From Primulina eburnea (taxonomy: Eukaryota; Streptophyta; Magnoliopsida; Lamiales; Gesneriaceae), in contig NC_133110.1 in NCBI RefSeq assembly GCF_022965805.1, positions 31,868,790 through 31,932,789 of the forward strand: a stretch of DNA of 64,000 nt, written 5' to 3'. Below, piece by piece: positions 11,484 through 36,327 of this stretch (position 1 is the first letter of the stretch; each line of letters starts with the position of its first letter). The position numbers and the translations under genes were made by a program. The notes under the pieces were generated by a model. That model worked only from the letters and a program-made list of their open reading frames with translations, searched no databases and was not told the origin of the DNA.

Positions 11484-11484
11484 A

Positions 11485-11497
11485 TTTCCCCTTTTTT
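11485..11497 (-). other. Polypurine tract of the outer copia
   Basis: Reading the minus strand, AAAAAAGGGGAAA lies immediately before the LTR start TGTTGGAAAC. It corresponds to CCCCCTTT at 14731-14740 in the inner element. Confidence 0.85.
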
Positions 11498-11658
11498 GGT
11501 GATTGACAAAACTCAGAATATAATAAACTGATCAGTTGAAGTAAATAATGCTTTGAATCATTGTAGATAAAATAATTTCTAGTGTACAGATTCGTACAAA
11601 CAAAACAAATAATCTTCAACTAATAACTGACAAAAAATCTCTTCAGCTGTATCCTCTC

Positions 11659-14727: not shown

Positions 14728-14912
14728 ATTTCCCCCTTTATGGTGTTTGACAAAACTAAGTAAATAATTACTGAACGTCTGAACTCATTGTAGATAAAAT
14801 AAGATATTGATCAACTGAATAATGGAAACTCATTGTAGATAAAATAAGAGATTGATCAACTGAATAATTGACTACACGAATCTGTAGAGATTTTTCTTCA
14901 ACGAGAAGATTT

Positions 14913-17649
14913 CTATTGTTGTTCTAGAATTTCTTTGATCTCTTCCTCCTTTTTGTCAAACAACTCCATCTTCGTAGATCCTTTTCGAACGTCAGTGAAA
15001 AGAATTTTGACATCTGAGGAGATACTTGAGACAGCAGATTGTAAAGAAGTCTGCAGCAATTCCATTTTATTAGAAACATAAGTTTACAATCGCTCAACTC
15101 GTTGACTGATTATATCCTGAGTTGTAAAGAGACTTTGAGCTAGACCTTTGTTATTCTTCATCTCATCCACAGTTCGGGTAAGAGACTCCATGTGTGCTTG
15201 AATGGCTTTCAGTTTTGCTAAATCAAATTCAATTGAAGAATCCCATTTGACTGTATGAGAAAATTGTGTGGATTGAATTTTCTTGATTTCAGTAATCATC
15301 TGCTGCATATTGTGCTGCATATTCTGGATTTCTTCAAGGACAAGATCCATTTCTGTGGATTGAAGAGGAGGTGACAGATCAGATGTTCTTGGTTCATGTG
15401 AGACTTGATCAAAGACCACCATGGTCCTATCAGATAGTATCGTTTTAGAAACAGTCTGTGCTGGAACATCTGTTTCAGTTACTGCTACTTGGACTGGAGG
15501 AGATGAGGATTGATGTTGATCAGCAATTGGGCTTTCCTGCTGAATAAGATCTTCAGTGAGAAGGTCGTGAACTGATACATCTATTTGATAGTCCTCTGAT
15601 ATTCGTGCTGGTTCATCAGTTGGAATTTTTTCAGAAGAAAATAAAAATGCCTCCATATTCTCAGCAATCTGTTGATTTGGTGATTGAGTAGGAACCACTG
15701 TTTGCTCCTTTAGTTCAGAAACAGCAGGCTGAACTGGTGCTTCTGTTGAGATGGGAACCTCTTGAGTGATTTGATCAGTTGAGTGATCAACTTCTTCAGA
15801 AATGGGTTCACTAATAATAGATTCTGTCACCACTGCTTGAATAATTTCATCAATGTTGGAAAAATTCAACTCGACTTCAGAGTACAACTGATGTTCCACA
15901 GCAGATGATTGTGGCACATCCTGAACTGTTTCTTCAGTTGTAACAATAGTTTGTTCAGAGGGTGGCTCTTTCTGCTGAGAGGAGGGTTCTTCTTCTTCTT
16001 CTTCTTCTTCTTCTTAATCTTCAGAGGCTTCCTCAGGAAGAACTAACTCTTGATCCATTTTCCACACTTTTATCTGAGCTTGAAAGCTAGTAAGATCTGT
16101 ATCTAGCTGAGTGATCACAGCTCGATCATTATAAGCAGTTGGATTGGTGGGAATGTAGTTTGCCTTCAATTTTTCAAGCAGTTGAGATAGCTTCTTAGAT
16201 CGAATTTGGTCAAAAAAATAGGTTTTCCTTTCCAAAGCCTGAACAATTATGGCAGCTTTGGCCATCTTGAGGACAATTGCATCCAGTTTGATAAACTTGT
16301 TCAGCTGGGATTTCTTTTTCAGCTGCTTAGCAAAAATCTGAGTTCTATAAGCGGTCCAGGCATCATAGGATTGAAGTTTTGATGCTGCAAATTATTAACA
16401 TGTTCCCAAACAAGGTCAATATGAGTTTGAATGGAATTGGATGGCCTGAGCTCTTCAATCAATTTGCCCTTGCCTTTTTCAGTACTGAGGATGTGTGGAA
16501 TTTCCAATCCAGTACGAGTAGTATCCACCAGTTCTGTAATCTTTAGACCTTTGGGTCTGGCAGGTGCTAGAACAGTAGGACGATTGATATGGATTAGAGG
16601 AGCTTTGATCCTAACTGTTTCCTTTGTTGCATCAGCTGAGATTTCTGGTGGGATGATCTCCAGAAGAATTGTTTTGATAGGTTCTTGGGCATTTGAAGAT
16701 TTCAGCCTTTCAGTAGGAATAGATTCTACTGTGGTTGGTAATTTTGTCCTTTGTGTTCTTTGTTTGGTTTCTTGGAAACTTTTGGAGAGGGTGTCTGCTC
16801 GGAATCGGATTCACTGATAATCAGTTTTCTTTTAACTATCTTCAGTTGAGCCAATGTCTTGGCCTGTTTAACTGATTTGGGAGCAGCATGTTGCGTCCCA
16901 ATCTCCTTCTTGATCTTTACGATTTGATCAGGAGAGATATCTAATTTAGTCTTGGGTGGCAGAACATTCTTCTCATTGAAAATTTTGAATTTAGATAATC
17001 GTTCCGAATCATCAGCCAACAACCCTTTGAATTTCATCAAATAGCTTAGCGGCACTGCAAATCCTTTGGATTGCTTGGTGGAGGAAAACATATTCTTCAA
17101 GATACTGAAAATAAGTTGTTTCCAGTTGAATTTTCTTCCAGTCACAATAATCGTAGTAGCAGGAAACTTTTCCAAAGTCAGGGCAGCATACGATCCTGCC
17201 TTAGCCAATAGCCCTTTGGCTACGATATCAGCTAGCAACTGAACCTCATGCTTCAGTTCCTTCTTAGGATCGGAAACTTTGATTTTCCGTCCATCAGCAG
17301 AGAGTGCAGTTTGCATTTCTTCAATATCTGATGCTTTAACATCAGCAAGGTGTACTAGTCCATCAGAAGGTAATGAAAAGATTTCTCCGAAAGAATCTTC
17401 AGAAATGGTCATCAACTGACCATTTATAGTGGAAATGATGCTTCCATCAGTGTTGATATATCCATTTGAGTAAAGGTCCTGGAGTTCGTTTGGGTAAATC
17501 TCCTGCGGGTATTGCCCCAAGAATATCCTCAACCCAGCTGATTCAAGCTTCAGAAATACATTTTTCACATCGAATTCTTCGACTGATAAAGCTGATTCAA
17601 AGTTGATAGCCATAGCGTTCAATATATGATCAGGGATCTGTTTTGCCAT
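14913..17649 (-). pseudogene. Accessory ORF of inner copia (about 910 codons), downstream of pol
   Basis: The start at 17649 (MAKQIPDHILNAMAINFES) is chosen because the outer copy begins MANQILAHMLNAMAINF at 29810; an upstream in-frame ATG exists at 17688. The N-terminal part (about residues 1-90) reads FLKLESAGLRIFLG, then YSNGYINTDG, SIISTINGQLMTIS and FSLPSDGL. That pattern recalls the putative plant transposon protein domain found next to plant retroelements; this is my impression, not a search. A basic segment follows (KRKLIISESDSE), then TAYNDRAVITQL, an acidic low-complexity region with a Glu run, and a heptad-like Gln/Leu-rich C-terminus. Frames break near 16740, 16320 and 16014 (TAA), so it is now a pseudogene. 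A minus-strand TATA box at 17761-17768 suggests its own promoter. Confidence 0.85.
15988..16015 (-). repeat. TTC/GAA trinucleotide repeat in the accessory ORF
   Basis: About nine TTC units on the plus strand encode a Glu run on the minus strand, directly beside the TAA that breaks the frame at 16014-16016. Slippage here is a likely cause of length change. Confidence 0.85.
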
Positions 17650-18259
17650 TGCTGAGAGTAAGAAAACCTGAAATTTTGCGAAATACAAGCTCTGAGTGTA
17701 TGAATTTGCTCTGAAAGATGATGTACGCGTAAGAAAGAAAACTGAATTGAAGCAGGGAATTATTTATATGTATGTGACTGTTTAAATTCTGGACACGTGT
17801 CAGTCCATGAAAAAATTTGAATAAAAAAAATGTGTACGTGTGTTGTAAGCATGTGTACAATTTAAACGGTTCAAATGCTTCCACGTTTTTTTAAAAATAA
17901 GATACATCATTAGATAACAGACAGTCACGTCACTTGATTTGGAATATAATATGGTTAATTAGTTAACTTATATGAGAAGATTAGTGAAATACCCAACTGA
18001 ACGATCAGTAGTAAGACTGTGTCCTTTCAGTTGAGAGTTTAATAACATTTGTCTTCTCAGTTAACCTCTTAAAATCATAATTCCCCCTTAATACATGCAT
18101 ATAATAATTAAAGTGACGATATAAAATAAAATTAAAGATCAGAAAGATTATCGTTTGCTGAAACGTTGACGGCCCTTCAGCTTCCATGATTTTCGGCTAT
18201 AAATAGAAGTAACACGGTTAGTTTCAGTCATAGTGGTGAAAATATTCAAGACAAAAAGA
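17650..18259. promoter_or_regulatory. Divergent promoter region between accessory ORF (-) and antisense gene A (+), inner copia
   Basis: Two start codons face away from each other across about 610 bp. Minus-strand TATAAATA is at 17761-17768, about 110 bases before the accessory ATG. Plus-strand TATAAATA is at 18198-18205, 55 bases before the antisense ATG at 18260. Between them lie the palindrome GACACGTGTC (17792-17801, core CACGTG = G-box, a known bZIP/bHLH site) and a block with TGTCTTCTCAGTTAACC and ATTCCCCCTTAATACATGCA. Both also occur in the outer element's equivalent region (29811-30429). The role as promoter is inferred. Confidence 0.65.
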
Positions 18260-18657
18260 ATGGTAGATGCGAGTAGCTCGAGTGCTTCGCCGTTTGCTCT
18301 GGAGACCAGGAAGGCTGTTATAGAAGATTAAGTCTTCTATAAGAGTCTTCACTACTGGGAAAAGTTACAGAGACTTGAGTTCCTGTATAATACTGGAGAG
18401 GCTACCACTCCCGAACTGCTGGCATAGTTGAAAAAGGTGCGGGAACACTTGAACCAAGCTGTGTGACTGGACATCTTTAAGGATGGTCATATCTATCAGC
18501 TAATGCTTCGAAAGAAACTGAAATCCTTAAGCGCATAGCTGTTTCTCATAGCTTTGTCAAGACGTCTACCGCGCCTTTATCCTCTTGGTTGAAAATGTGG
18601 ATAATTGTTGTAGAGGAAAAATATGATGAAGTAATCCGTGCAAATGTTTATGGTTGA
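18260..18657 (+). pseudogene. Antisense small gene A, inner copia (broken)
   Basis: It lies on the strand opposite to the element's gag-pol. A TATA box (18198-18205) precedes ATG at 18260 by about 55 bases. The frame begins MVDASSSSASPFALETRK and shares YWEKLQRLEFL, ATTPELL and HIYQLMLRKK with the outer copy (30430-30849). Early TAA, TAG and TGA codons and a later frame change make it a pseudogene. The last codons (DEVIRAN, then TGA at 18655-18657) line up with the outer copy's DVIRTN end. The downstream text CTTTCCTGCAAATGATG resembles the 3' flank of gene B. The function is unknown and no known motif is visible. Confidence 0.7.
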
Positions 18658-18939
18658 ATGAAATATCTATATGAGATTAACTTTGTTCTTCTCTTTCCTG
18701 CAAATGATGAATTTCATCAGTTGTTATATATGAATTGCGAATTTAAACAGATGAACTGATGAAAGAATAACTTATATAAATTTACTATGAACTGAAATCA
18801 GTTAAGCATTAAGTAATAAATGACAAACTGATATCAGTTGATAATGAACAACTGATAAATAAGAAGCCTGGGTAAATGAGAAAAACGCTTCGGTTGACTT
18901 GAGACTCTTTGGTTTCTTCAACATTTAATGTCATCTGTC

Positions 18940-18947
18940 TATAAATA
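18940..18947 (+). promoter_or_regulatory. TATA box of antisense gene B1
   Basis: TATAAATA follows TCTGTC and lies 39 bases before the ATG at 18987, the same spacing class as for gene A in both elements. The second B copy (19811) lacks this box because the duplication begins at 18978, downstream of it. Confidence 0.65.
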
Positions 18948-18986
18948 AGACGAGAGAGATAAAATGTGAGACAATAACAGTTCAAT

Positions 18987-19418
18987 ATGTCGGATTCAAG
19001 TAATTCTGATGCATGCAGCAGTACACATATTCAAGTTACTGAACAATTAACTCCTTATTTAGAGGAGTTGAAGAAAACGATGGAGGAATATGTCTTAACT
19101 TAGGTGATGTCAACATGGTTCAAAATTCATGTTTTGCAGAGGATAAGTAGTGGTGGTGCTGCTCCTTTTCGTGCTCAAGCAGCAACATCAAGAAAATACA
19201 TTAATCATTTTGAAGTCAGGCATGTTACAAACCTGGTTGATTACAATGTTCTGTTACAAGCAATGCTATGGAAGGAATGATATGTGATTGAGAAGATTTC
19301 TACAACTGAATCATTTTCTAGAATCCGAATTTATGAGTTGAATAAATGGATTACAGAATGGCAAGATTCAGTTGGTTCTAAGTTATCTTTTGTAAGATGG
19401 AATCGATTTTATTCTTAA
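18987..19418 (+). pseudogene. Antisense small gene B, copy 1 (143 codons)
   Basis: ATG at 18987 starts MSDSSNSDACSSTHIQVTEQ, and the frame reaches TAA at 19416-19418, 143 codons on. It is broken only by an internal TAG (about codon 39) and a TGA where a Trp codon is expected. AATAAA (19417-19422) overlaps the stop. Aligned by eye with antisense gene A it shares spacing and residues: MEEYVL/MEDDVF, then KYINHFEV/KYRERLHV, VDYNVLLQAMLWKE/VDIFEYGYVYQLMLKKE and ISTTESF/IANSDSF. This implies a paralogous family. Predicted mainly helical and charged, with no recognised domain. Transcription would run antisense to RNase H and RT. Confidence 0.75.
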
Positions 19419-19498
19419 TAAAGTATCATTTCCAATTTGTTGTTGTGTTCTTATTTTCTGCAAATAATTTTATTAGTAAAACAGTATCAATAATAATT

Positions 19499-19801
19499 TT
19501 AAGACAAGTCAATTAAACCAAGAATATTGCGAAAGTAAGAAAAATTATTCTCGGGTAATGGTTTGGTGAAGATGTTAGCTGCTTGTTGCTCAGTTGAAAT
19601 ATACTCCAGTCTAATGTTTTTCTTCAAAGGATGATCTCTAATGAAGTGGTGCCTGACATTTATATGCTTGGTCCTTGAATGAAGAACTGGATTATAGGTG
19701 ATGGCAATTGTGCTCGTATTGTCGCAAAATATGGGCGATTCATTTGCAATTACTCCATAATCTCTCAATTGTTGCTGGATCCAGATCAGTTGTGCATGCA
19801 G
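19499..19801 (-). pseudogene. Duplicated copia RNase H C-terminal end (copy 1)
   Basis: The open frame from 19768 contains FCDNTSTIAIT, HINVRHHFIRDH and EYISTEQQAANIFTKPL, the standard copia RNase H C-terminal signature, ending at a stop at 19499-19501. It is separated from the rest of pol by gene B copy 2. It cannot be part of the polyprotein and arose by the tandem duplication. Confidence 0.88.
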
Positions 19802-19810
19802 CAGTTCAAT

Positions 19811-20241
19811 ATGTCGGATTCAAGTAATTTTGATGCATGCAGCAGTACGCATATTCAAGTTACTGAACAATTAACTCCTTATTCATAGGAGTTGAAGAAA
19901 ACGATGGAGGAATATGTCTTGACTAAGGTGATGTCAACATGGTTCAAAATTCATGTTTTGCAGAGGATAAGTAGTAGTGGTGCTGCTCCTTCTCGTGCTC
20001 AAGCAGCAACAACAAGAAAATACATAAATCATTTTGAAGTCAGGCATGTTACAGACCAGGTTGATACAATGTTCTGTTACAAGCAATGCTATGGAAGGAA
20101 TGGCATGTGATTGAGAAGATTTCTACAACTGAATCATTTTCTAGAATCTGAATTTATGAGTTGAATAATTGGATTATAGAATGGCAAGATTCAGTTGGTT
20201 CTAATTTATCTTCTGTAAGATGGAATCGATTTTATTCTTAA
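19811..20241 (+). pseudogene. Antisense small gene B, copy 2
   Basis: It begins at ATG 19811 with the same N-terminus as copy 1. It has a TAG in TATTCATAGG after about 25 codons, keeps Lys where copy 1 has a stop (VLTKVMSTWFK), and lacks one base near 20065 (GATACAATG against GATTACAATG), which shifts the frame and ends it early at 20110. The 3' end again has TAA inside AATAAA (20240-20245). Copies 1 and 2 are thus broken at different places, so the source copy was probably intact when duplicated. Confidence 0.72.
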
Positions 20242-20321
20242 TAAAGTATCATTTCCAATTTGTTGTTGTGTTCTTATTTTCTGCAAATAATTTTATTAGT
20301 AAAACACTATCAATAATAATT

Positions 20322-22067
20322 TTAAGACAAGTCAATTCAACCAAGAATATTGCGAAAGTAAGAAACTTAGTCTCGGGTAATGGTTTGGTGAAGATGTTAG
20401 CTGCTTGTTGCTCAGTTGAAATATACTCCAGTCTAATGTTTTTCTTCAAAGCATGATCTCTAATGAAGTGGTGCCTGACATTTATATGCTTGGTCTTTGA
20501 ATGAAGAACTGGATTATAGGTGATGGCAATTGTGCTCGTATTGCCACAAAATATGGGTGATTCATTTGCAATTACTCCATAATCTCTCAGTTGTTGCTGG
20601 ATACAGATCAGTTGTGCACAACAACTGCCAGCAGCAAGGTATTCTGCTTCAGTTATTGAGGTAGCTATGGATGTCTGCTTTTTGCTGAACCAAGAGATCA
20701 GCCTGTCTCCTAGAAACTGACAAGATCCACTTGTACTTTTACGATCAAGCTTACAACATGCATAATTTGCATCTGAATATCCAACTAAATTGAAAGTAGA
20801 GTCTTAGAATACCATAACCCAACATTTTGTGTACCCTTAAGATATTTCAAAATTGCTTTAGCAGCTGAGAAATGTTATTGCTTAGGATTTGCTTGAAATC
20901 TAGCACACATACAGACAGCAAATACAATATCAGGACGAATGACAGTTAAGTACAACAATAAACCTATTAAACCTCAATATAATGTCGCTTTAACTGATAT
21001 TCCCCCTTGATCAGTGTCCAATTTTACTAATGAGCTCATGGGAGTATTTGCAGCTGAACATGATTCCATGCCAAATTTCTTCATCAGCTCCTTTGTATAT
21101 TTAGTTTGACTGATGAATATACCAGTCTCCAGTTGCTTCACTTGCAGTCCAAGAAAAAATGTCAGTTCACCCATCATGCTCATTTCAAACTTATCCTACA
21201 TTAGCTTAGCAAACTTTTCGCATAATTTGGGATTACTTGACCCAAATATGATATCATCAACATAATTTGAACTACTAAAATGTGATCATTTTTAGCAAAT
21301 TTGAACAAGGTCTTATCAACTGTTCCAACAGAAAAATCATGATCAGTTAGAAATTTTGAAAGAGTTTCATACCAAGCTCTGGGAGCTTGTTTAAGACCAT
21401 ATAAGGCTTTGTTCAAATGATATACTTGATCAGGAAAGTCGTGATTTACAAAACCTGGGGGTTGTTCAACATATACTTCCTCTTGTAGTTGACCGTTTAG
21501 GAATGCACTCTTACATCCATCTGATAGACCTTGAAGTTCTTGTGTGATGCATAAGCAAGAAAAATTCTGATTGCTTCAAGTCTTGCAACTGGAGCATACG
21601 TCTCATCATAGTCAATTCCTTCTTCTTGCCTATATCCTTGTGCCACTAATCTTGCTTTGTTGCGTCAAACTGAACCATCCTCGTTCAGTTTATTTCTCTA
21701 TACCCATTTTGTACCTATAATAGTTTTTGAAATTGGTCTTCGAACTAAGTTCCAGACATTGTTATAAGTGAACTGATTTAGCTCTTCTTGCATTGCATTT
21801 ACCCAGTTAGGATCAGCAAGAGCTTCATCAATTTTCGTAGGTTCTAGTTGTGAAACAAAAGCTGAATAGATAAATAAATTTAGCATTTGATTACGAGTTC
21901 TTACTGGATCAGATGGATTTCCTATTACCAGTTCAATGGATGTGATTTTCTCCATCTGTACTCAATATTTGTTGTATCAGCAATTTCTTCAGTTGGTAAC
22001 TGAACACAGTTTTCAGTCTCAGTTGGTGTTTCGTCAACTGGTATTTGAATTTTATCATTATGCTCTA
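20322..22067 (-). pseudogene. Inner copia RT and RNase H
   Basis: RT begins near 21955 (LVIGNPSDPVRTRNQMLNLF, EALADPNWVNAMQEELNQF, GTKWV). It continues with [36 protein letters not shown] and the RNase H end (EYISTEQQAANIFTKPLPE) near 20420, stopping at 20322-20324. The catalytic YVDD text is present (TATGTTGATGAT on the minus strand, near 21255), but a missing base just before it shifts the frame. There are further stops, for example in the NKARLVAQ and RNase H regions. The protein would copy the RNA and remove the template; this copy is inactive. Confidence 0.9.
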
Positions 22068-23529
22068 TCAACTGATCATCAGCAACGACTTCCTGCACAT
22101 TTGATTGGTCCAGTACTTCTGGTTCAGGTGTTTGAAATATGTTTTGTCATCATCTTCTAAACTGATATCTGTAAATCGATCAACTAGCTCAACTTTATAA
22201 GTTGGCTTATCAGTTAGTTCAGTTTCATCGAAATCAACATGAGCAGATTCTTCAACATGTAGGGTTTTCTTGTTGAAGACTCTATAAGCTATACTAACTG
22301 ATGAGTATCCAATAAATATTACTTCTGCAGATTTAGCATCAAATGCTTTTAAATAATTTTTACCATTATCAAGAATAAAACATCTGCAGCCGAATATTTT
22401 GAAATAAGTAATTATACTTTTTCTTCCATGCCAGATCTCATATGGTGTTTTCATATGATTGTTATTAATCATTGATCTGTTCTGAGTGTAAAATGCAGTG
22501 TTTACTGCCTCTGCCCAAAATCTTTGAGAAATACCAGAATCAGCAAGCATGTTCTAGCAGCTTCTTTAAGAGTCCGATTTCTTCTCTCAGCTACACTATT
22601 TTGCTGAGGAGTTCTGGCTGCTGAGAGCTCATGCTTGATTCCAGCATTTTCTAGGAAATTTTAAAGAGTTTGATTGATGAATTCAGTTCCTCGATCAGAT
22701 CTGATTCGATCAATTCCAACTGATTTTTCATTTAAAAGTCTTTTGAAGAGCTTTATTAGTTGCGAAGCAGTATGGTCTTTAGATTTGAGAAAAATAACCC
22801 AAGTAATTCTTGAAAAATCATCTACGACTACCAAGGTGTATTTCATTCCTCCTAAGCTCATGGCTGGTATAGGACCAAAGAGATCCATGTGCAACAGTTC
22901 TAAGCATCGGGATGAAGATTTACAACCCTTGTTTTTCAAAGAGGATCGTACTTGTTTACCATACTGACATGCTGAGCAAATTTTTTCTTTTGAAAAGTCT
23001 ATTTTGGGCAAACCAGTTACAAGTTCATGTTTACTCAGATAGGAAATGGATTTGAAGTTTAAATGATTTAGTCTCTTATGCCACAACAAGTTTTTAAATG
23101 ATTTGGAAGCAATAAAACAAACTGGTGCATAAGTTTGATCATTCCAACTGACTTTATATGTGTTTCCAAAACGTTTGCCAGTTAGTATGATTTCATCAGT
23201 TGAAGTTTTGACTGAACATGATTTTTTGTCAAATTGTACTAAGAATCCACTGGCGCATAACTGACTGATGCTAATCAAGTTATACTTCAGGTTTTCTACT
23301 AATAGAACATCTTTAAAAGTAAAGTTACCATGGATAAGCTTACCCCTACTCACAGTTCTACTTTTGGTGTCCCCGAAACTGATGTTTGGACCACCGTATT
23401 CGATCACTTGATAACGCACTTGCATCTCCTGTGATATGTCGCGAACATCCACAGTCCAAATACCATATTGAGTTCTTGTTTGTACCTGTTACCTGCAATC
23501 ACACACATAATATAACTTGGTACCCATAT
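22068..23529 (-). pseudogene. Inner copia protease end and integrase
   Basis: Protease is recognised by WYLDCGCSRHITGD near 23455; the catalytic DSG reads DCG. The GAG-pre-integrase zinc finger (HKRLNHLNFKS, later CSACQYGKQV) lies near 23090-22965. The integrase core has LLHMDLFGP and IRSDRGTEFINQ, then stops at about 22661. Translation by eye continues in another frame with the PQQNSVAERRNRTLKEAAR signature to about 22560. The C-terminal part (FWAEAVNTAFYTQNRSMI, KTPYEIWHGRK, KIFGCRCF) is 22550-22068. The acidic residues of the DDE triad are recognisable, but the frame is broken. Confidence 0.9.
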
Positions 23530-25367
23530 CTATTTGGGTCCTGAACTGATTAGTCCATTAGGAACCCACACTTGAATTAGTCTAACAGACTTTACAATAG
23601 CTGTATTCCAAATGGTTTTTCTCGGCTTTTGTGTGCTTGGTGTGTAGTGTACAACTGATACAATATGTGTTTTAGCTTTATTCAACTGATTGTTCAGTTT
23701 ATATCTCTTCTGAACTGACTTGCAGTTATAGTAATTGAAATAGATATTCAAATAGTTCTTGTAAAACCTCTTTGATGACTGACTTTGTGAATCAGTTGAG
23801 AGTTTTTGACTATAACCAATCCCATATCTTTTAGCCTTGTTCATATTCTCAGTAGATTGCTCAATCAGTTTTCTGGGCTCAATTTGTTCTTGTACCACTG
23901 TTGCTTTGACAAAGTGAATGTATTTCCCTTTGTCTATTTTTAGCTTTGGTTGAGTATCATTTGGATACATTTCTCCTTGAGTGTTGAACCCTAAACTAGT
24001 TTTATCAGAGACTAATTTTGTGAATTCTGCATCTCATTCAGTGCAGTAGATGACTTGTTCCGAGACTGAATGAGCTCAGTCTGTTTTGAGTTTTCAAGAA
24101 TCAACTTCTGGATTAATGACTGATTTTAGTCTCTCTCTACTTTTAGATCAGCAATTTCCATTTTTAGACTCAACCCATCAACTGATTCATCAGTTTTGGT
24201 TTTATTGTCTGTGGGATCAGTTTGCTTTGCTTTGATTTTTTCAAACGATGATGCAAGCTTTTGATACTCATTTACCATGTCATGTAGTGTTAGAATGAGT
24301 TCTTCTCGTGTGAAATCAGTTGATCTGAAATCAAATACCTGTTGGCTAGATGATTCTTCTTCTGCATTATTAGCCATCAAGCACTTGACTTCCTCATCAT
24401 CACTAGAGCTGCATGAGCTTTCTGGTTCTGACTCTTCACTGTTAGTTTCTGTCCATTTAGATTTGTTTTTTTCAGCTAAGAGTACTGCATGCTTCTTTCT
24501 GAAGGACTTCTTATCTTCCTTGGGTCTTATTTTGTGCTCATATGATTTTTTTCTTCTATCAGTTGAGCCTTGACTGTCCTTCTTGGGTTTAGGACAATCA
24601 GCAATAAAGTGGCCTGATTTGCCACAATTGTAGCAGTCATTTGATTCATCTTTGGAGCTGTTCCTTTGGTATGGCTTCTGGAAGTTTCCTTGATTCTTTC
24701 TCATGAACCTTCCAAATTTTTTGATGAACAATGACATAGCATCACTGCTCAACTAATCAGCAGATTTCTTGACTGAACTGATTGGTTCTTTGGACTCCCT
24801 CATTGCCATGGTCTTGATATCCCATTCCTTGGGAAGACCTCTCATTACCTTCAGTGCAATCTCTTTGTTCGTATACACGTTTCCAAGTGCATTTAACTCA
24901 TTGATGATACTGGTTACTCTTTCATCATACTCGTGCATTGATTCTCCTGCTTTCATTTTGTTTTGATCAAACTTTTTAACAGCAATAGACAGTTTATTTT
25001 CTTTGTTTTGATCATTTCCTTCACACAGCTGAATCAGCTTTTCTCAAATTTCTTTGGCTGTCTTACACATCTTTATTTTGCTGAAGGTTACTTTGTCCCT
25101 CGTTTTGTACAGAATGTCTTTAGCCACATTATCAAGATTTGCTTTTCTTTTATCTTCAGTTGTCCATTCATCTCTGGGCTTTTCTATTCTTTGTGGTGCC
25201 TCTTCTATTATGGCAACTGCTGTATTTGTTTTTAGAATCTTCATGGGTCCATCAGTTATGACATACCACATGTCATCATTTTATGCAGCTAAATGAGCCT
25301 GCATTCTGATTTTCCAATCATCAAATTCTTCTTTGGAGAACACAGGAATTTTGTTGAATGAAGTCAT
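23530..25367 (-). pseudogene. Inner copia gag
   Basis: Start at 25367, about 45 bases after the primer-binding site: MTSFNKIPVFSKEEFDDWKI, the usual copia Gag N-terminus, with a TAA shortly after (LAA*NDDMWYV). The UBN2-like capsid region follows (GESMHEYDERVTSIINELNALG, LKVMRGLPKEWD), then a nucleocapsid zinc knuckle of CX2CX4HX4C form (CYNCGKSGHFIADC) that is intact, an acidic Ser-rich stretch (CSSSDDEEVKCL), a charged helical region and a linker to protease. Compared with the outer copy it lacks about 40 codons near the LHDLFADLKAYE segment. Frames break at 24755 and near 24010. Confidence 0.9.
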
Positions 25368-25413
25368 GCTAGCAAGTTTATAGATCAAAAGTATTCAAGA
25401 ACAAGATTCAACC

Positions 25414-25425
25414 GCTCTGATACCA
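25414..25425 (-). other. Primer-binding site of inner copia
   Basis: The minus strand reads TGGTATCAGAGC two bases after the LTR end. It is complementary to the 3' end of plant initiator tRNA-Met, the usual copia primer. Confidence 0.9.
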
Positions 25426-25427
25426 CT

Positions 25428-26423
25428 TGATAGGATCGATTAACGTATCAAGAGTTTTTAGAAAGGGGGGTTGAATAAACACTCACAATTAAAACTGATC
25501 TTTTCGAATTTTGAGTTCAGTTTGGTGACAAACTGATTCTCGGAATCTTGTTTTTCAATGACAATCAGTTAAAATAAATTAGTTGAGGAAAGTAACTGAC
25601 TGAAAGATAGAATACGAAACTGAAATAAAATACACAAGGATTGTTTCTGGATGTTCGGAGATTTCAATTACTCCTACGTCACTCCTTCTATCTCAAGGAT
25701 AGGATTTCCACTAAAAGACTTTGATCGAATACAAGATTTGTACTGACCCACTTCAGTTTGGACTTATCACTGCCAAAATTTGAAATTCTTAGTATTACAA
25801 AATGTTCTCAGTGCGTAACTGATCTTAGCACTATCGAATTTAACTATTATTACAAAGTGCTAGTGAGCTCAAATTGTAGCCTTGACTGCTACGAATAAAT
25901 CAAGTAAGAGTGAGCTGAGATTTTAGCAGAGTAACATCAAGCTTTGAATAGAGTGATCTCTTCTTTTTCTTCAGCTATTCTTCTGTCATATTTATAAGCT
26001 TCCCTTCCAACGGTAACTTGAGATATATTTGAATCTTTGTATCCGTTGATTGCCACTTCATTATTCCTTGGTAATTGTTTGCTTCATTTATTGTAATGCG
26101 GCGTCTTAATTTCTTTAGCCGAAATGCGTTGTTCTAAGCTGTATTTATTGAAGTGCGGCGTTTCACATTCAGTTGCAGTCTTCTATGTCTCTTTTTCGGT
26201 TGAATGTTCTTTCCCGAGACATGTTTAGTTGAAGGATCGGCTGAATGTATTATTTGTCGGTTGACGTGTTCCAGATTTGCTAGTGAGGAGAATAACTGAA
26301 TTGCATTTCAGTTTTGTCGATTAGTTTACTAGATTCAGTTGCTGAGTTCAGTTTACTCGATCAGTTGGTTCGTATTTTCAGTTGGTTTATATTTTGTCAA
26401 ACGCCGAAATTTAGTTTCCAACA
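25428..26423 (-). repeat. 5' LTR of the inner copia (996 bp)
   Basis: It runs TGTTGGAAACTAAATTTCGG to CGATCCTATCA on the minus strand and is flanked on its outer side by GTTTT (26424-26428). The minus-strand TATA box is at 25989-25996. It would drive gag-pol. Confidence 0.92.
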
Positions 26424-26833
26424 GTTTTTGGTGGCTGAACATTCTTGGCGTTGAAAACCTTGAATTTTGATGATCTCTCTGAATCATCAGCCACCAATCC
26501 TTTGACTTTCATCAAGTAACTCAGCTGTACTGCGAATCCTTTGGACTGCTTGGTGGATTGAAACATATTCTTCAAGATATTGAAGATAAGGTGCTTCCAG
26601 TTCAGTGTTCGTCCAGCCATGATAACAGTAATGGCTTGAAATTTCTCCTAGGTATGTGCAGCAAAAGATCCTGCCTTCGCCAATAGCCTCTTGGCTACAA
26701 TATCCGCCAGCAACTGAACTTCGTGTTTCAGTTCCTTCTTTGGATCGAAAACTTTGATTTTCCGTCCATCAGCAGAGAGAAGAGTTTGCATCTCTTCGAC
26801 ATCAGATGCCTTAACTTCATCAAGGTGTGCTAG
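26424..26833 (-). pseudogene. Accessory ORF of outer copia, middle piece
   Basis: It carries homologues of inner residues about 100-235: ADGRKIKVFDPKKELKHEVQ, LLADIVAKRLLAKAGSF, ILKNMFQSTKQSKGFAVQLS and VKGLVADDSERSSKF. It is cut on the left by the inner copia (GTTTT) and on the right by the gypsy solo LTR (GCTAG). One in-frame stop (CTCCTAG on the plus strand near 26647) interrupts it. Confidence 0.85.
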
Positions 26834-27423
26834 TGTAACGTACCGTACTTTTACTATTCAAAATTTGGAAAAAATTAAAAATTTTCTTAAATCAACATGG
26901 ACATTCAAAATTCGATAAAAGAAATAAACTGTACCGTCTGTACGTCTCACAAGTCGTTACAACAAGAGTCTTAAATGTTTTCATAAAACTTAAAACATGG
27001 CGGTCCAAGGGTTTAGCCTCTCGCTCAGTCCAAGCCTGCTCCTCGGTCCCCACCTTCAGTCTCCTCATAAACATCCTCACCTGCATCGATCAAGTCTAGT
27101 GAGTCTAAAGACTCAACACGTATAAACTGGAAGTAACAAGTACTACATAATAAAATCACGTACAACTTTAAAATAGAACATACATACTTAAAACCTGAAC
27201 TTGCATACCAAAACCTGAACATACGTACATACATACTTAGACGTGCCATCGACATAAACTTTTCTTAAACATTCTTGCATACTTAAACATACTTGAACAT
27301 ACATAACTTCATCATTTTGCGTAGAGGCATGTTTCAAAGAAAGTGATCCATACATAAAAACGCCTGATCAGACTAAACCATAATACTGGGCTGACAGGGA
27401 AAAATCCACTGCCACATACGTGA

Positions 27424-27545
27424 GATCCCCGTTCATAATTTAACAGGCTGATTGGTCCCCGTTCATAATTTAACGCTTTCCAATCTCGATCTAAACCCGT
27501 TCATAATTTAACGGGCGGATTGGTCCCCGTTCATAATTTAACACT
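27424..27545. repeat. CCCGTTCATAATTTAAC repeats
   Basis: Four copies of CGTTCATAATTTAAC, alternating with GGCTGATTGGTCC or CTTTCCAATC spacers, so the pairs form a compound unit of about 60 bp. They lie in the gypsy solo LTR. Confidence 0.85.
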
Positions 27546-27861
27546 TTTCAATCCTAAAAATAATTTGTTCACAAGACATTTAGCATACCTCAAAAACTTG
27601 AAATATTTTCTTGCACGTCAAACATACTTACTTGGCGTTGAGGGATTTGTTGGACTTCGATTGGGGCCGTTGCTGCACATACTAACATGAATTCCAATGC
27701 TTAACTTGCATAACTTAGACGTAAATATTATGCTTAATTACGAGCTCAATCAATTCCTTAGGACGTTCTAAAATTCTCATGACTCGACCTTGTAAATCAT
27801 TGTATAATAGCATGACGTCAAATCTCAAAGCATACTATAAAATTTTTCCCAAAATGTGAAA

Positions 27862-28122
27862 GACACGGACCCCATGTTTGGGTCCGTGTATGGGTCCGTG
27901 TAGTTGCGCAAAAGGAATACTCGAGAAGGAGAAAGGACACGGACCCCGTGCCTAGGTCTGGCTCCGGGTCCGTCTACGTGCGTGAAATTTATCGTGAAGA
28001 AAAGGGAAGGCACAGACCCCGTGCCCTGGTCCGTGTGGGGGTCCGTGTCAGATCGCAAAAAGGACAATCAAGAAGAAACGAAGACACGGACCTCGTGCCA
28101 GGATCCGTGTCCGGGTCCGTGA
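27862..28122. repeat. Four GC-rich hairpin units (CACGGACCCC ... GGTCCGTGT), period about 74 bp
   Basis: Units near 27862, 27937, 28009 and 28083 each carry CACGGACC, a short spacer, then GGTCCGTGT and a second GGTCCGTG. The arms can pair. AT-rich spacers with GAAGAAA-type text separate them. The pattern produces overlapping spurious ORFs on both strands. Confidence 0.85.
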
Positions 28123-29514
28123 ACCCTCGTTGTACGCGAACTCACGAAAATTCTGTACATGCCAGCTTATCGTCCTAGACTCGATTGTATGGACCGTGAA
28201 CCGACACCACGAACCCCTCCTAGGATGCTATATCATTGACTCAAGCCTATAAAATCATCCCAAAATAGCCACATATCACAAATAACCCAATAAACCCGTG
28301 AACACTACTTTTGACAACAACACGATTTATACGACCATTAAATCTCCCAAGTGCCTAACGACGCGAAACGAAAATACCATAACCAACCCAACATCATGCT
28401 AAACATACCTAGGCACAACAACGATCACCCGTCGATCCCCAAAAAAGACAGCAACAAATAACTTCAAGAACGCATCAATATCCTAGTTTTCTGAAAACTC
28501 AGTTTGATCAATCCCACGATAAACCTCATAACTCACTCAATTTTCATCCAAATATTTTGAATCTTATATCAAATCGAAGGTATCAACAATTTCTACGTTT
28601 TTTGTGTTGCAAGTTTTCTCAGAATCCCGACCGCAAAATCGTAGTATTTAAAAATACAGTAAAAACGTAAATTTTAGATCTAAAAATAGTTTCAAAAGTG
28701 ATATAGACATAATTGCTCAAACTTCTACATATCACACATGCATATTTACGCATAAATAACAACACAACGAATAATATGACGATATCGATGCAGAAATAAC
28801 AAAATATATGTGTCTTTTGATGATTTGAAATACAGTAATGACGACACCGATGCGGGAAGGATGCGAGAGACGATCTGGGACGAACATGCACGATTTTCTT
28901 GCAACAAAACTTTAGAAAACTTGCTGGAAAACGAAGGGAGAAGGGCGACTGCTCTTTCTTTTGAAACCCTAGGTTTTACTCTAAAATAAAAATAAAAATC
29001 TGAATAGTGAAGTGAGTGAGTGTGTGTGTGTTTAGGTGATTTTTAGTGTGTGTGCGTGTGATTAGTAAATTAGGAAGAGTAAAATTTGCTTAATTATTAA
29101 TTTGCAACAAAATTACTAACTCTCCCTCAACTTTAACAAAATCTCTAATTTAAATTAAAACACACAAAAATGCTAATTTTAAAAGTTACAAACTCTTAAA
29201 TCACTAAATAAATAAATCAGGCTTTTTAAGATACTAAGACTTAATAAATTATTTAAAATACCCCATCCTTAACTTAAAAATAAAATACCACGTTTACAAA
29301 TTGCCAAACTCGCCACCGGTCTCATTCCTCGATCCCGCATCGAATAATCGCCTGAAACATGACACTTGAAAAACATTTTAACGTGCATCACACAAACATT
29401 AAAATAATGCAATTTAAATTAATCATGCATCAATAAAATCATTTTAAATTAAATAAATGCTTTAATAATTAATTAAATGCATGAGTTATACGTGTACTGC
29501 ATTTGGGCACTACA

Positions 29515-29810
29515 GCTAGCCCATCAGAAGGCAATAAGAACATTTCTCCAAACGATTCTTCAGAAATGGTCAACAACTGACCATTGACAGTAGAGATGAA
29601 GCTTCCATCAGAATTGATATTCCCATTAGAGTAGAAGTCAAGAAGTTCCTTTGGATAGATCTCCTGCAAAGAATGCCCCAAAAATGTCCTTAGCCCAGCT
29701 GATTCTAGCTTCAGAAATACGTTTTTGACATCGGATTCTCCGACTGATAGAACTGATTTGAAATTAATAGCCATAGCATTCAACATGTGAGCGAGAATTT
29801 GATTTGCCAT
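29515..29810 (-). pseudogene. Accessory ORF of outer copia, N-terminal piece
   Basis: It starts MANQILAHMLNAMAINFKSV at 29810 and reads without a stop through FLKLESAGLRTFLG, YSNGNINSDG and SISEESFGEMF-type text to LPSDGLA, where the gypsy LTR inserted. It is closely similar to inner residues 1-95. The intact N-terminus and conserved start context support the chosen ATG. Confidence 0.87.
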
Positions 29811-30429
29811 TAGAACTGAATGATTTCCTGCGAAAAAGAAAGCTCGAATTTGATTTTGCTCTGAAAATTTTAGGTAAACGTAAGGAAGAATAACTGAAAT
29901 GGAGCGGGTAAAGTACTAATGTATGTGACTGTTCGAATTATTGGACACGTGTCAGTCCAGGAAATTTTGAATAAAGGACGTGTGTACGTGTGGTAAAAAC
30001 GTGTGTTGAAAATACATGGAATATAAGGGTCCACGTTTCAACCTATCATTTGTTGAAAGATAGCATTTGATGCTTTGATAATCAATCACGTCACTAAATT
30101 TGGACTAAAAAATGGTTAATTTGTTAACTTATGTGAGAGGATTAGTAAAATAATCAGCTGAACGATTAGTTGTGAAACTGTGTCTTTTCAGTTGAAGATT
30201 TACTAACTGCTGTCTTCTCAGTTAACCTTTTAAACCAATATTCCCCCTTAATAAATGCATATAAACATTATGAGAATTTAAGCAAGACGAATTAAATAAA
30301 ATCTTATGCTTAGAAGGTTAATCGTCTGTCGTAATGACTTTGTTCTTTCATCTTCGTTGACCCTGGGCTATAAATGAGAGTAGCTCAGTTAGTCTCAAAC
30401 ATATCAACAAATAATATTCAACAGCTATA
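29811..30429. promoter_or_regulatory. Divergent promoter region, outer copia
   Basis: It corresponds to 17650-18259 in the inner element. GACACGTGTC (29944-29953) and the surrounding GTATGTGACTGTT and CAGTCCA words are conserved, as is the TGTCTTCTCAGTTAACC block near 30211. The plus-strand TATA box (TATAAATG, 30369-30376) is kept, but the minus-strand TATAAATA for the accessory ORF is gone (TACTAATGTATGTG). The minus-strand promoter may therefore be dead here. Confidence 0.6.
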
Positions 30430-30849
30430 ATGGCAGGTGCAGGTAGCTCGAAGACTCCAAATATGGCTGAAGAATTTATGAACTCAGCTCTGGAGAAACG
30501 AAAATCTGATATGGAAGATGATGTCTTCCATAAAATCCTTTGATACTGGGAGGAGCTACAAGGACTCCAGTTTCTCAAGGAGTGTGGGATGGCTACCACT
30601 CCCAGACTGGTGGAAAAACTGGAGAAATATCGGGAACGCTTGCACGTTGCTGATACGGTGGACATCTTCGAATATGGATATGTCTACCAGCTAATGCTCA
30701 AGAAGGAAAGGAAGATCCTAGAGCGTATAGCTAACTCAGATAGCTTCCTTAAGACTTCCACTGGAGATTTAACCTGTTTGTTGAACAAGTGTAGGTCTTT
30801 TGTAGAAGAAGAATTTTTCGATGTAATCCGTACCAATTTCTTTAAATAA
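30430..30849 (+). pseudogene. Antisense small gene A, outer copia (139 codons, one in-frame TGA)
   Basis: TATAAATG at 30369 precedes ATG at 30430 by about 60 bases. The frame begins MAGAGSSKTPNMAEEFMNSA and runs 139 codons to a TAA at 30847-30849. One internal TGA (30541-30543, codon 38) is the only break. AATAAA (30845-30850) contains the stop, as in gene B. Key stretches are MEDDVFHKIL, YWEELQGLQFLKE, VDIFEYGYVYQLMLKKERK and CRSFVEEEFFDVIR. It is acidic to neutral, probably helical, with no known domain or signal peptide. Its strand is opposite to gag-pol, and it sits between RNase H and the accessory ORF. Lengths and spacing match gene B. This is the best preserved copy of the family in the window. 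Confidence 0.78.
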
Positions 30850-31067
30850 AATGTTTATTTCGTTTATCATTGTCTTTTATTTTTCTGCAAGATTTAATCT
30901 CATCAGTTGATAAGTAAATCACGAACTGAACATAATAACTGACAAAAGATTAATTGACATCAGTTGAAATTCAAATGGATAAAAGACGAACTGAATATAA
31001 TAACTGACAAAAGAACTGATAGATGACACAAATTAATTAACAACTGATATAACAGCAGTAAAACTGG

Positions 31068-32749
31068 CTAGGATAAATCAATTAATCCAAGTATATTGTG
31101 AAAGTGAGAAAACTTAGTCTCGGGCAATGGTTTGGTGAAGATATCAGCTGTTTGTTGTTCAGTTGAGACATATTCCAGTCTGATGTCCTTCTTCAAGGCA
31201 TGATCTTTGATAAAGTGATTCCTGACATCTATGTGTGGTCCTCGAGTGAAGAACTGGATTGTAGGTAATAGCAATGGTGCTTGTATTGTCACAGAATATG
31301 GGCGATTCTTTAGCGTCAACTCCATAGTCTCAGTTGTTGCTGAACCCAGAGCAGTTGAGCACAATAGCTTCCAACAGCAAGGTATTCTGCTTCAGTTGTG
31401 GAAGTTGCTATGGATGTTTGCTTCTTGCTAAACCAAGAAATCAGTCTGTCTCCTAGAAACTGACATGATCGACTTGTACTTTTACGATCAAGCTTACATC
31501 ATGCATAATCTGCATCTGAATATTCAATTAAATTGAAAGAGGAGTCTTTAGAATACCATAACCCAACATTTTGTGTGCCCTTAAGATATTTCAAAATACG
31601 CTTGACAGCTGAAAAATGTGATTGCATAGGATTTGCCTGAAATCTAGCACAAATACAGACAACAAATACAATATCAGGACGACTAGCAGTTTGGTACAAT
31701 AATGAACCTATTAAACCTCTGTAAAGTGTCGTCTCAACTGATATTCTCCCTTGATCAGTGTCCAGTTTTACGGATGAGCTCATGGGAGTACTTGCAGCTG
31801 AACACGATTCCATGCCAAATATCTTCAACAACTCCGTCGTGTATTTAGTCTGACTTATAAAAGTGCCTGTCTCCAGTTGCTTCACTTGTAGTCCAAGAAA
31901 GAATGTCAGTTCACCCATCATGCTCATTTCAAATTTCACCTGCATCAACTTATGAAATTTCTCTCATAATTTGGGGTTAGTTGACCCAAATATGATGTAA
32001 TCAACATAAATTTGAACAAGTAAAATGTGACCATTCTTTGAAAATTTGAACAATGCCTTATCAACTGATCCCACAGAAAATCGTGATCAGTTAGAAATTT
32101 TGAAAGAGTTTCATACCATGCTCTTGGAGCTTGTTTAAGACTATAAGGCTTTGTTCAAATGGTAGACGTGATTAGGAAAATGATGATTGAAAAAACCTAG
32201 AGGTTGTTCAACATAGACTTCTTCTTGCAACTGGTCATTCAGGAATGCACTCTTTACATCCATCTGGTAGACTTTGAAGTTCTTGAATGATGCATAGGCA
32301 AGGAATATTCTGATAGCTGGTGCATATGTTTCATCATAATCAATTCCTTCTTCTTGCCTATATTATTGTGCTACCAGTCTCGCCTTGTTGCGGACACTTG
32401 AACAATTTTCGTTCAGTTTATTCCTGTACACCCATTTTGTACCTATAACAGTTTTTGAAACTGGTCTTGGAACTAAGTTCCAGACATTGTGATGGGTAAA
32501 CTGATTAAACTCCTCTTGCATTGCATTTGTCCAGTTTGGATCAGCAAGAGCTTCATCAGTTTTCTTCGGTTCCAATTGCGATACAAAAGCAGAATGAATA
32601 AATAAATTGAGCATTTGATTCCTTGTTCTTACCGGGTCAGATGGATTACCTATCACCAATTCTGGAGGATGTGATTTCTTCCATCTGAGTTCATCGTTTG
32701 TTGCTTCTGTTTCAGCCATTACTTCAGTAGGCAACTGAATGTTTTCAGT
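31068..32749 (-). pseudogene. Outer copia RT and RNase H
   Basis: RT begins LVIGNPSDPVRTRNQMLN near 32660, then EALADPNWTNAMQEEFNQF, PVSKTVIGTKWVYRNKLNE and [11 protein letters not shown] long open stretch, 31948-31499, holds MSMMGELTFFLGLQVKQLE, LIGSLLYQTASRPDIVF and LKYLKGTQNVGLWY, ending at YSDADYA. The catalytic YVDD reads YVDY (near 31990), which would abolish RT activity. The RNase H end (HIDVRNHFIKDH, EYVSTEQQTADIFTKPL) stops at 31068. Several frameshifts occur, as near 32120 and 31360. Confidence 0.9.
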
Positions 32750-34317
32750 TTCAGCTGTTGCATCAGTTGGTAATTGAATATTCTCAATAGGCTCCTCCAA
32801 TTGATTATCAGGAACAGCTTCCTGTTCAACTGGTTGATCTAACACTTCTGGTTCAGGTGTTTGAAGATTATCTTGATTGATATGATTTTCTTCTTCATTA
32901 TCATCTTCCAAACTGATATATGTAAGTCGATCAACTAGCTCAACTGGATCAGTTGGCTTATCAGTTAATATAGTTTCATAAAAAACAACATGTATAGACT
33001 CTTCAACATTTAGTGTTCTCTTGTTAAAGACTCTATAAGCTTTGCTAACTGATGAATAAGCCAGAAATATTCCCTCTGCAGATTTAGCATCAAAGGCTTT
33101 TAAATGATTTTTGCCATTTTCAAGAATAAAACATCTGCAGCCGAATATTTTGAAATAAGAAACCACACTTTTTCGTCCATGCCAGATCTCATAAGGTGTT
33201 TTCAAATGATTTTTATTAATCATCGATCTGTTTTGAGTATAACACGCAGTGTTTACTGCCTCTGCCCAATACCTTTGAGAAATACCAGAATCAGCAAGCA
33301 TTGTTCTAGCAGCTTCTTTAAGGGTTTGATTTCTTCTCTCAGCTACACCATTTTGCTAAGGAGTTCTAGCTGCTGAAATCTCATGCTTAATTCCAGCATT
33401 TTCTATAAAATTTTAAAGAATTTGGTTGATGAATTCAGTTTCTCGATCGGATCTGATCCTATCGATTCCAACTGCTTTCTCGTTTAATAGGTTTTTGAAA
33501 AGCTTGATCAGTTGTGTAGCAGTTTGGTCTTTGGATTTGAGAAAAATAACCTAAGTAAATCCTGAAAAATCATCTATAACCACCAAGGTGTATTTCATTC
33601 CCCCTAAGCTCATGACTGGTATTGGATCAAATAGATACATATGTAACAGCTCTAAGCATCGGGAAGAAGATTTACGACCCTTGTTTTTAAAAGAAGATTT
33701 AACTTGTTTACCAAATTGACATGCTGAGCAAATTTTATCTTTGGTAAAATCCATTTTGGGCAAACCAGTTACAAGATCATGATTACTCAGATATGCAATA
33801 GATTTAAAGTTCTGGTGGTTTAATCTCTTATGCCACAACAAGTTTTTAGAAGATTTTGAAGCAATAAAACATACTGTGCATAAGTTTGATAATTCCAACT
33901 GACTTTGTAAGTGTTTCTACACCGTCTGCCAGTTAGTATGACCTCATCAGTTGCATCTCTGACTGAACAAGAATGTTTGTCAAACTGAACTGAGAATCCA
34001 TTATCGCATAACTGACTAATGCTAATAAGATTACACTTGAGATTCTCAACTAATAAAACATCATTAATGATAAAGTTACCATGGATAAGCTTACCCTTAC
34101 CCACAGTTTTACCTTTGGAATTATCTCTGAAACTGATGTTTGGACTAGTGTATTTGATCAGTTGAGATAACAAGTTTGCATCTCCCGTCATGTGTCGTGA
34201 GCATCCACTATCCAAGTACCAGTTCCTTGCTTGTACCTGTTTCCTGCAATGACACACAAGATATAATTTTGGTACACACAAGATATAATTTTGGTACCCT
34301 TTTCTATTTGGGTCCAA
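32750..34317 (-). pseudogene. Outer copia protease and integrase
   Basis: Protease: WYLDSGCSRHMTGDANLLSQ near 34220, with the DSG active site intact. Integrase: zinc finger HKRLNHQNFKS and CSACQFGKQV near 33830-33700. In the core the first catalytic Asp context reads HMYLFDP instead of the HMDLFGP seen in the inner copy, so an Asp is replaced by Tyr. The C-terminal domain (AEAVNTACYTQNRSMI, KTPYEIWHGRK) runs from 33301. An acidic linker rich in E, P and Q (EPEVLDQPVEQEAVPDNQ) leads into RT. Frameshifts separate the three open parts. Confidence 0.9.
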
Positions 34318-36272: not shown

Positions 36273-36313
36273 TGAGTAGTTTGAGTAGAAATATTCTTAG
36301 ACAAGATACAACC

Positions 36314-36325
36314 GTTCTGATACCA
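36314..36325 (-). other. Primer-binding site of outer copia
   Basis: The minus strand reads TGGTATCAGAAC after the LTR end, one base different from the TGGTATCAGAGC of the inner element, in the same position relative to the LTR. Confidence 0.85.
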
Positions 36326-36327
36326 CT

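What the first reader, a model, noticed from the sequence alone, without database searches (positions are those of the whole stretch)
18260..30849. Opposite-strand ~140-codon gene family inside copia elements, each with its own TATA box and a stop codon inside AATAAA
Four copies occur on the strand opposite to gag-pol: outer A (30430), inner A (18260), inner B1 (18987) and B2 (19811). Three have the layout TATAAAT(A/G), 39-61 bases, ATG; B2 lacks the box. The stop TAA lies within AATAAA in outer A, B1 and B2. A and B differ in sequence but align by eye over most of their length (MEDDVF/MEEYVL, KYRERL/KYINHF, QLMLKKE/QAMLWKE, NSDSF/TTESF). Conservation of a frame between paralogues suggests past selection on the protein. 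Extra antisense ORFs are known from Tat-lineage gypsy elements; I do not know of this family in copia elements. Every copy here has at least one stop, so the claim concerns the family.
Basis: partly seen in the sequence, partly recalled or inferred. Interest (0 to 1): 0.93.

Follow-up and report, generated by a model that had tools for sequence, protein, structure and literature searches.

The report
Antisense accessory genes in plant Sireviruses
Many copies of a jumping gene in the plant Primulina eburnea carry one or two small extra genes written backwards between their usual genes, and the pattern of mutations shows that natural selection has been preserving the proteins they would make, although nobody has yet seen those proteins or what they do.

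Summary
The observation mostly holds, and its coding interpretation is well supported. Both carry antisense gene A between pol and the env-position ORF; the inner one also carries paralogue B. B2 is only half of an 823-bp tandem duplication that cut off the TATA box. A-B homology is real (score 108; best of 2000 shuffles 50). Intact frames exist elsewhere in the host genome: A in 18 of 39 inner-type copies and in 11 of 20 outer-type copies that keep the start codon; B in 6 of 36. A is under purifying selection: dN/dS 0.25 among 20 divergent copies, 0.33 among 20 outer-type copies, 0.32 between families (other frames 0.87-1.49). B is too among 12 divergent copies (0.42), but not within the inner family (0.86). 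A TATA box about 61 bases before the A start is conserved in 36 of 39, 17 of 20 and 15 of 20 copies examined. A stop inside AATAAA is not a trait of A. Antisense extra ORFs are known from gypsy Tat/Retand elements; ten literature searches found none described for Sireviruses. Transcription and function are untested.

The parts
10445..37363 (-). outer Sirevirus-type copia element (LTRs 10445-11483 and 36328-37363, 94.2% identical), interrupted by the inner element and by a 2.7-kb insertion
   Evidence: self-comparison; junctions
13692..26427 (-). inner Sirevirus-type copia element (LTRs 13692-14731 and 25427-26427, 92.5% identical), inserted in the env-position ORF of the outer element
   Evidence: junctions
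30430..30849 (+). outer A: antisense gene, 139 codons, one stop at codon 38
   Evidence: dN/dS
30369..30376 (+). TATA box of outer A (61 bases before the ATG)
   Evidence: conserved in 17 of 20 outer-type copies
18260..18661 (+). inner A: broken by three stops and a frame shift; its family elsewhere is 132 codons long
18198..18205 (+). TATA box of inner A (62 bases before the ATG)
   Evidence: conserved in 36 of 39 inner-type copies
18987..19418 (+). B1: paralogue of A, 143 codons, two stops
   Evidence: P0001; genome copies
18940..18947 (+). TATA box of B1 (47 bases before the ATG)
   Evidence: conserved in 32 of 36 copies
19811..20241 (+). B2: second copy of B, made by an 823-bp tandem duplication (18978-19796 and 19802-20618) that also repeats the end of pol; no TATA box
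16726..17649 (-). inner env-position sense ORF (307 aa, weak match to PF20167 below its cut-off)
29516..29811 (-). outer env-position ORF, first piece (further pieces near 26423-26834 and 13507-13692)
30102..30270 (.). best conserved non-coding block between the elements (80-85% per 60-base window), upstream of the A TATA box; holds an internal polypurine-tract octamer on the minus strand at 30241 (inner counterpart 18081)

Best explanation
A and B are paralogous accessory genes of a Sirevirus (SIRE-lineage copia) group in Primulina eburnea. They lie between pol and the env-position ORF on the strand opposite to gag-pol. Shown by sequence: the frame, the antisense placement, intact copies, purifying selection on the A protein, a conserved TATA box at a fixed distance, and A-B homology. 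Inferred: each is transcribed from its own TATA promoter independently of the LTR, and yields a small, mostly helical protein that helps the propagation of its own element subfamily, most likely as a regulator of the element's own expression or silencing, in the manner proposed for the antisense genes of Grande and Retand. B arose by an old duplication of the A unit, is kept in some subfamilies, is absent beside A in the outer type and is decaying in the inner type.
For: Window: dN/dS outer A against inner A 0.36 (bootstrap 0.19-0.58), other frames 0.97 and 1.80. Genome: 20 outer-type copies 0.327 (control frames 1.19, 1.08); 11 intact of these 0.290; intact outer x intact inner 0.320 (0.87, 1.49); 20 divergent copies 0.249 (1.17, 1.07); inner family, all 40 copies including the window's, pN/pS 0.50 (0.94, 1.13). 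B: 12 divergent copies 0.417 (0.86, 1.21). TATA at 61-62 bases in 36 of 39 and 17 of 20, at 60-66 in 15 of 20, against 0.002 expected for a 3-base window. Pol end on the opposite strand in 34 of 34 inner-type loci where it was found, 40 examined; pol end at the expected side and env-position ORF, both opposite, in 27 of 30 outer-type loci each. Models all-helical, pLDDT 67 and 58.
Against: No RNA, protein or phenotype evidence. Structure models have low to moderate confidence and no structural match (136 and 261 hits up to E 10, none at or below 0.001). No family match in Pfam up to E 1. Proteins are acidic to mildly basic (outer A pI 4.9-6.8, B 6.1-7.9, inner A 5.9-9.0), which does not favour a strongly basic DNA binder. 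B shows no constraint within the inner family (0.86 against 0.66 and 0.82), and the same B stop is seen in up to 5 copies, so elements without B have multiplied.
Confidence: 0.6

Rival explanations
1. The region works through antisense RNA or promoter activity (for example double-stranded RNA that moderates the element), and the open frame is incidental.
For: A TATA box is conserved, the non-coding block upstream is better conserved between the two elements than A itself, and antisense RNA roles are discussed in the review PMC7264820.
Against: Codon-frame-specific constraint, about half of all changes at third positions in frame 0 only, and intact frames at 62-98% DNA identity are not expected of a non-coding RNA.
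Confidence: 0.1
2. A and B serve virion or replication steps (for example a particle component or chaperone) rather than regulation.
For: Selection is visible even within the inner family for A (pN/pS 0.50); the abstract of PMC9073684 argues that such a signal needs products acting preferentially on their own copy.
Against: No similarity to gag, pol or known particle proteins; a separate antisense unit uncouples its dose and timing from gag.
Confidence: 0.2
3. Captured host gene carried along by the element.
For: No similarity to retroelement proteins.
Against: Hits examined lie beside pol or the env-position ORF in nearly all loci long enough to tell; the protein search found no host protein relative.
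Confidence: 0.05
4. Relic: selected in the past, with present copies only hitch-hiking on active elements.
For: All four window copies are broken; B is unconstrained within the inner family; singletons in A are near neutral (ratio 0.72, control frames 0.68 and 0.74).
Against: 18 of 39 inner-type and 11 of 20 outer-type A frames are intact, and within-family pN/pS for A is 0.50.
Confidence: 0.15

Closest known systems
[quoted passage not shown]
   Same: Placement between pol and 3' LTR, opposite strand, conserved across copies; for gene23 the review reports its own promoter and a nuclear protein (PMC7264820, parts 1 and 2 of 3 read)
   Different: Those are gypsy elements (bean ORF2: all 15 families gypsy, 211-939 aa; passages of PMC4093653); here copia, about 140 codons, in part two tandem paralogues, plus a sense env-position ORF downstream. 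The letters of those proteins were not held, so homology was not tested.
Retand antisense ORFs with the TRP28 domain (PF04195)
   Same: Antisense, pol-3'LTR region, widely conserved, proposed regulatory role (passages of PMC11963269)
   Different: No Pfam match up to E 1 for A, B or P0001; different superfamily of elements
SIRE/Sirevirus eORF-3'F (env-like ORF)
   Same: Same element lineage; this ORF is present here too, on the sense strand
   Different: A and B are a further, antisense and shorter gene set; the survey PMC6317226 scored only extra ORFs of at least 250 codons (passages and section 10), so genes of this length lay outside it
Retroviral antisense genes such as HBZ of HTLV-1
   Same: Antisense accessory gene with its own transcription unit (from the review, and titles and abstracts)
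   Different: There transcription starts in the 3' LTR; here the candidate promoter is internal. No sequence relation was tested.

Membership tests
Sirevirus (SIRE lineage of copia) | gag-pol with CCHC knuckle and copia-type reverse transcriptase (RVT_2) | tested here: met
   zf-CCHC in 24126-24752, above cut-off; SH3_retrovirus above cut-off and RVT_2 just below its cut-off at the ORF end in 32363-33301
Sirevirus (SIRE lineage of copia) | Terminal polypurine octamer AGGGGGAG (A as last letter in ToRTL1 and Tnd-1), AT/TG attachment site, inverted repeat around it (PMC2829016, passages) | tested here: met
   Inner element AGGGGGAA, then AT/TG, with inverted arms; outer element differs by one base of the octamer
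Sirevirus (SIRE lineage of copia) | Further copies of the octamer in the linker | tested here: met
   Minus-strand octamer at 18081 and 30241 before the env-position ORF; also at 21000 and 33598, outside the linker
Sirevirus (SIRE lineage of copia) | Primer binding site fitting tRNA-Met next to the 5' LTR | tested here: met
   TGGTATCAGAGCGG (inner) and TGGTATCAGAACGG (outer) beside the 5' LTRs; that this fits initiator tRNA-Met is recalled
Sirevirus (SIRE lineage of copia) | Position in a reverse-transcriptase tree | not tested
   No named reference set was held
[quoted passage not shown]
Antisense extra ORF between pol and 3' LTR (a kind, not a homology group) | Antisense transcript from an own promoter | not testable with these tools
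   TATA box conserved, but no RNA data
Retand TRP28 antisense proteins (PF04195) | PF04195 match | tested here: not met
   No Pfam family up to E 1 for the full A and B readings or P0001

The most novel reading that the evidence does not exclude
A and B are the first antisense accessory genes recognised in Sireviruses: self-promoted regulators that can be expressed while the LTR is silenced, act preferentially on their own subfamily (for example by counteracting its silencing), and have duplicated, diverged and been lost as subfamilies evolved.
Probability: 0.25. Interest if true: 0.82.

Novelty: new variant of a known kind. Interest (0 to 1): 0.62.

Why it matters
Antisense genes in plant retrotransposons are known mainly from gypsy Tat/Retand elements and have no settled function. 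A short, fast-evolving but clearly selected antisense pair in Sireviruses shows that the arrangement also occurs in the other superfamily, and that surveys limited to ORFs of 250 codons or more would miss it. Subfamilies with A alone and with A and B, and many intact copies in one genome, make the old question of what antisense accessory genes do directly testable.

Tried and rejected
Rejected: chance frame; overlapping sense gene as the source of constraint (antisense frames of A carry 3-9 stops in the inner copy, dN/dS 0.49-1.70; not repeated on the genome set); B2 as an independent gene; stop inside AATAAA as a family trait of A. Led nowhere: protein search with A (0 of 10 candidates scored); IMG/VR scans with A, B, the env-position ORF and P0001, and a prokaryote-genome scan with P0001 (no relatives); Rfam on 9000-40000 (no match at gathering score); PDB sequence search (best E 0.13); Foldseek. 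Upstream similarity of A and B1 is weak: outer A/B1 matched by 18 of 1000 shuffles, inner A/B1 by 127 of 1000; downstream 2 and 1 of 1000. A run with four loci on the wrong strand (dN/dS 0.42) was thrown out and repeated with strands taken from tblastn.
Full report
Setting. The window is part of an 812-Mb assembly (G000:C10:31868790-31932789). Two contig lengths of that assembly (29,615,798 and 45,357,081) equal those given for Primulina eburnea proteins P0002 and P0003, so the host is taken to be Primulina eburnea (Gesneriaceae). Two copia elements are nested on the minus strand: outer LTRs 10445-11483 and 36328-37363 (94.2% identical), inner LTRs 13692-14731 and 25427-26427 (92.5%). They carry Sirevirus marks: the primer binding site, the polypurine octamer with AT/TG junction and inverted repeat (marks from passages of PMC2829016), further octamers in the linker, and a sense ORF in the env position. 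A reverse-transcriptase tree was not made.

The antisense frames. Outer A (30430-30849), inner A (18260-18661), B1 (18987-19418) and B2 (19811-20241) lie on the plus strand, between the pol end and the env-position ORF. A and B1 align over 100 residues without a gap at 27% identity (blastp E 1.7e-10), and the Smith-Waterman score of 108 is never reached in 2000 shuffles (best 50). B1 and B2 are the two halves of an 823-bp tandem duplication that includes the end of pol. The outer element has A but no B. A-B divergence is much greater than the divergence of outer A from inner A (27% against 49-55% protein identity), so the A-B duplication is likely older than the split of the two families, with B lost from, or never joined to, the outer type (inference).

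Relatives elsewhere. The protein search found nothing for A (10 candidates) and one for B: P0001, 103 residues, open throughout, from a 722-base ENA contig of unstated kind (78% identical to B1). In the host genome inner-A DNA gave 717 first-look candidates, of which 40 were scored, all 93-100% identical. The A protein piece gave 4289 candidates with 150 scored at 64-100% identity, and P0001 gave 4456 with 150 scored at 74-98%. Candidates that were not scored are not confirmed copies. In one search I counted by eye 62 listed rows with a stop in the matched piece; the rest, more than half, had none.

Intact copies. Of 39 inner-type loci other than the window's (L009-L047), 18 keep the A start and a 131-132-residue frame; B is found in 36 and is full length in 6. 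Of 30 outer-type loci (L048-L077, the first being the window's own), 20 with the start in place were used. L054 was left out as a repeat of L053, and the row for L076 had picked the neighbouring copy of L077. Eleven of the 20 are intact. None of the 30 outer-type loci shows a B of more than 50% identity. Of 20 more divergent copies, 14 have the start and no stop over 139 codons, but 18 of these 20 rows had been listed as stop-free when I picked them, so this is no estimate of frequency. Mean stops per copy in the inner family are 0.40 for A against 10.9 and 9.5 in the other frames, and 1.08 for B against 9.9 and 15.9.

Selection on A. In the window, outer against inner A gives dN/dS 0.36 (bootstrap 0.19-0.58), with 0.97 and 1.80 in the other sense frames. 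Outer A against each of the 18 intact inner copies gives 0.29-0.43, median 0.35 (other frames median 0.93 and 1.72). Twenty outer-type copies give 0.327 (1.19, 1.08); the 11 intact ones 0.290 (1.37, 1.04); the 18 intact inner ones 0.480 (0.99, 0.81); between the intact sets 0.320 (0.87, 1.49). Twenty divergent copies give 0.249 (1.17, 1.07), with 48% of changes at third positions. Pairwise values share history, so the number of pairs is not a sample size. Yardsticks from the window pair: env-position ORF 0.136 for each of two pieces, gag 0.147, pol pieces 0.19, 0.23 and 0.45. A thus evolves faster than the other genes but under clear constraint.

Selection on B. Twelve divergent copies (10 listed as stop-free when picked, as confirmed) give 0.417, with 0.86 and 1.21 in the other frames. 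Within the inner family B shows none: pN/pS 0.86 against 0.66 and 0.82, with changes spread evenly over codon positions, while A in the same loci shows 0.50 against 0.94 and 1.13. B1 against B2 is 1.04 on 15 changes. Some B stops are shared by up to five copies. B is therefore kept in some subfamilies and relaxed in the inner one.

Within-family variants of A by frequency give N/S ratios of 0.72 for singletons, 0.52, 0.27 and 0.41 for rising frequency, but on counts as small as 3 to 3 in the upper classes; the control frames do not fall in the same way in frame 2 (0.74, 1.18, 1.71, 1.14) and are 0.68, 0.59, 0.42 and undefined in frame 1. This is weak support at best.

Promoter and end. A TATA box lies 61-62 bases before the A start in 36 of 39 inner-type and 17 of 20 outer-type copies and at 60-66 in 15 of 20 divergent ones; before B at 46-47 in 32 of 36. 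Background for a 3-base window is 0.002. Relatedness of copies inflates these counts, but the distance is kept between families that differ at a synonymous distance near 1. The stop inside AATAAA is kept in 6 of 6 full B frames, 4 of 11 intact outer-type A and 0 of 19 full-length inner-type A frames. A-B similarity downstream of the stop is modest (2 and 1 of 1000 shuffles reach it), upstream weak or absent (18 and 127 of 1000).

How it may work (inferred). The models are all-helical but of low to moderate confidence and match no known structure. The abstract of PMC9073684 argues that selection on transposon proteins is visible only if they favour their own copy. An antisense message is not obviously tied to the genomic RNA, so a product recognised by, or acting at, the element's own DNA, RNA or subfamily is the simplest reading; hence a regulatory or anti-silencing role is preferred over a general particle role. 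The moderate or acidic charge speaks against a strongly basic DNA binder. None of this is shown.

What is known. [quoted passage not shown] passages of PMC11963269, and PMC4093653). For SIRE the survey PMC6317226 reports a sense extra ORF in 74% of elements and counted only extra ORFs of at least 250 codons (passages and section 10); its supplementary tables were not seen. Ten searches of the held library listed no paper that describes an antisense gene in Sireviruses; subscription papers, such as the 2011 survey by Steinbauerova and colleagues cited there, were not available. So the kind is known, and the superfamily, size, pairing and protein family appear new.

Noticed in passing
18081 and 30241 (minus strand): An internal polypurine octamer sits at the matching place in both elements, inside the best conserved non-coding block (80-85% per 60-base window), 110-270 bases upstream of the A TATA box; Sirevirus linkers are reported to carry extra octamers (PMC2829016).
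   Followed up: partly
26835-29515: A 2.7-kb insertion of unknown kind splits the outer env-position ORF; the flanking pieces overlap by 5 bases in the inner counterpart, like a target-site duplication.
   Followed up: no
9301-10328 and 38676-39705: A third pair of LTR-like repeats (92.8% identical) brackets the outer element, suggesting that it sits in yet another element.
   Followed up: no
L076/L077 (G000:C8:9785551-9786214): Two A-type matches lie head to tail 361 bases apart, apparently a tandem duplication of A.
   Followed up: no
protein P0002 (Primulina eburnea): A gene model named LOG3-like ends in a piece of the env-position ORF (93% identical), probably a gene-prediction fusion or an insertion into the gene.
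   Followed up: no
20320-24752 against 31068-35560: Synonymous distance between the two elements is lower in the pol pieces (0.33-0.48) than in gag, the env-position ORF and A (0.74-0.88), as if pol had been exchanged between subfamilies.
   Followed up: no
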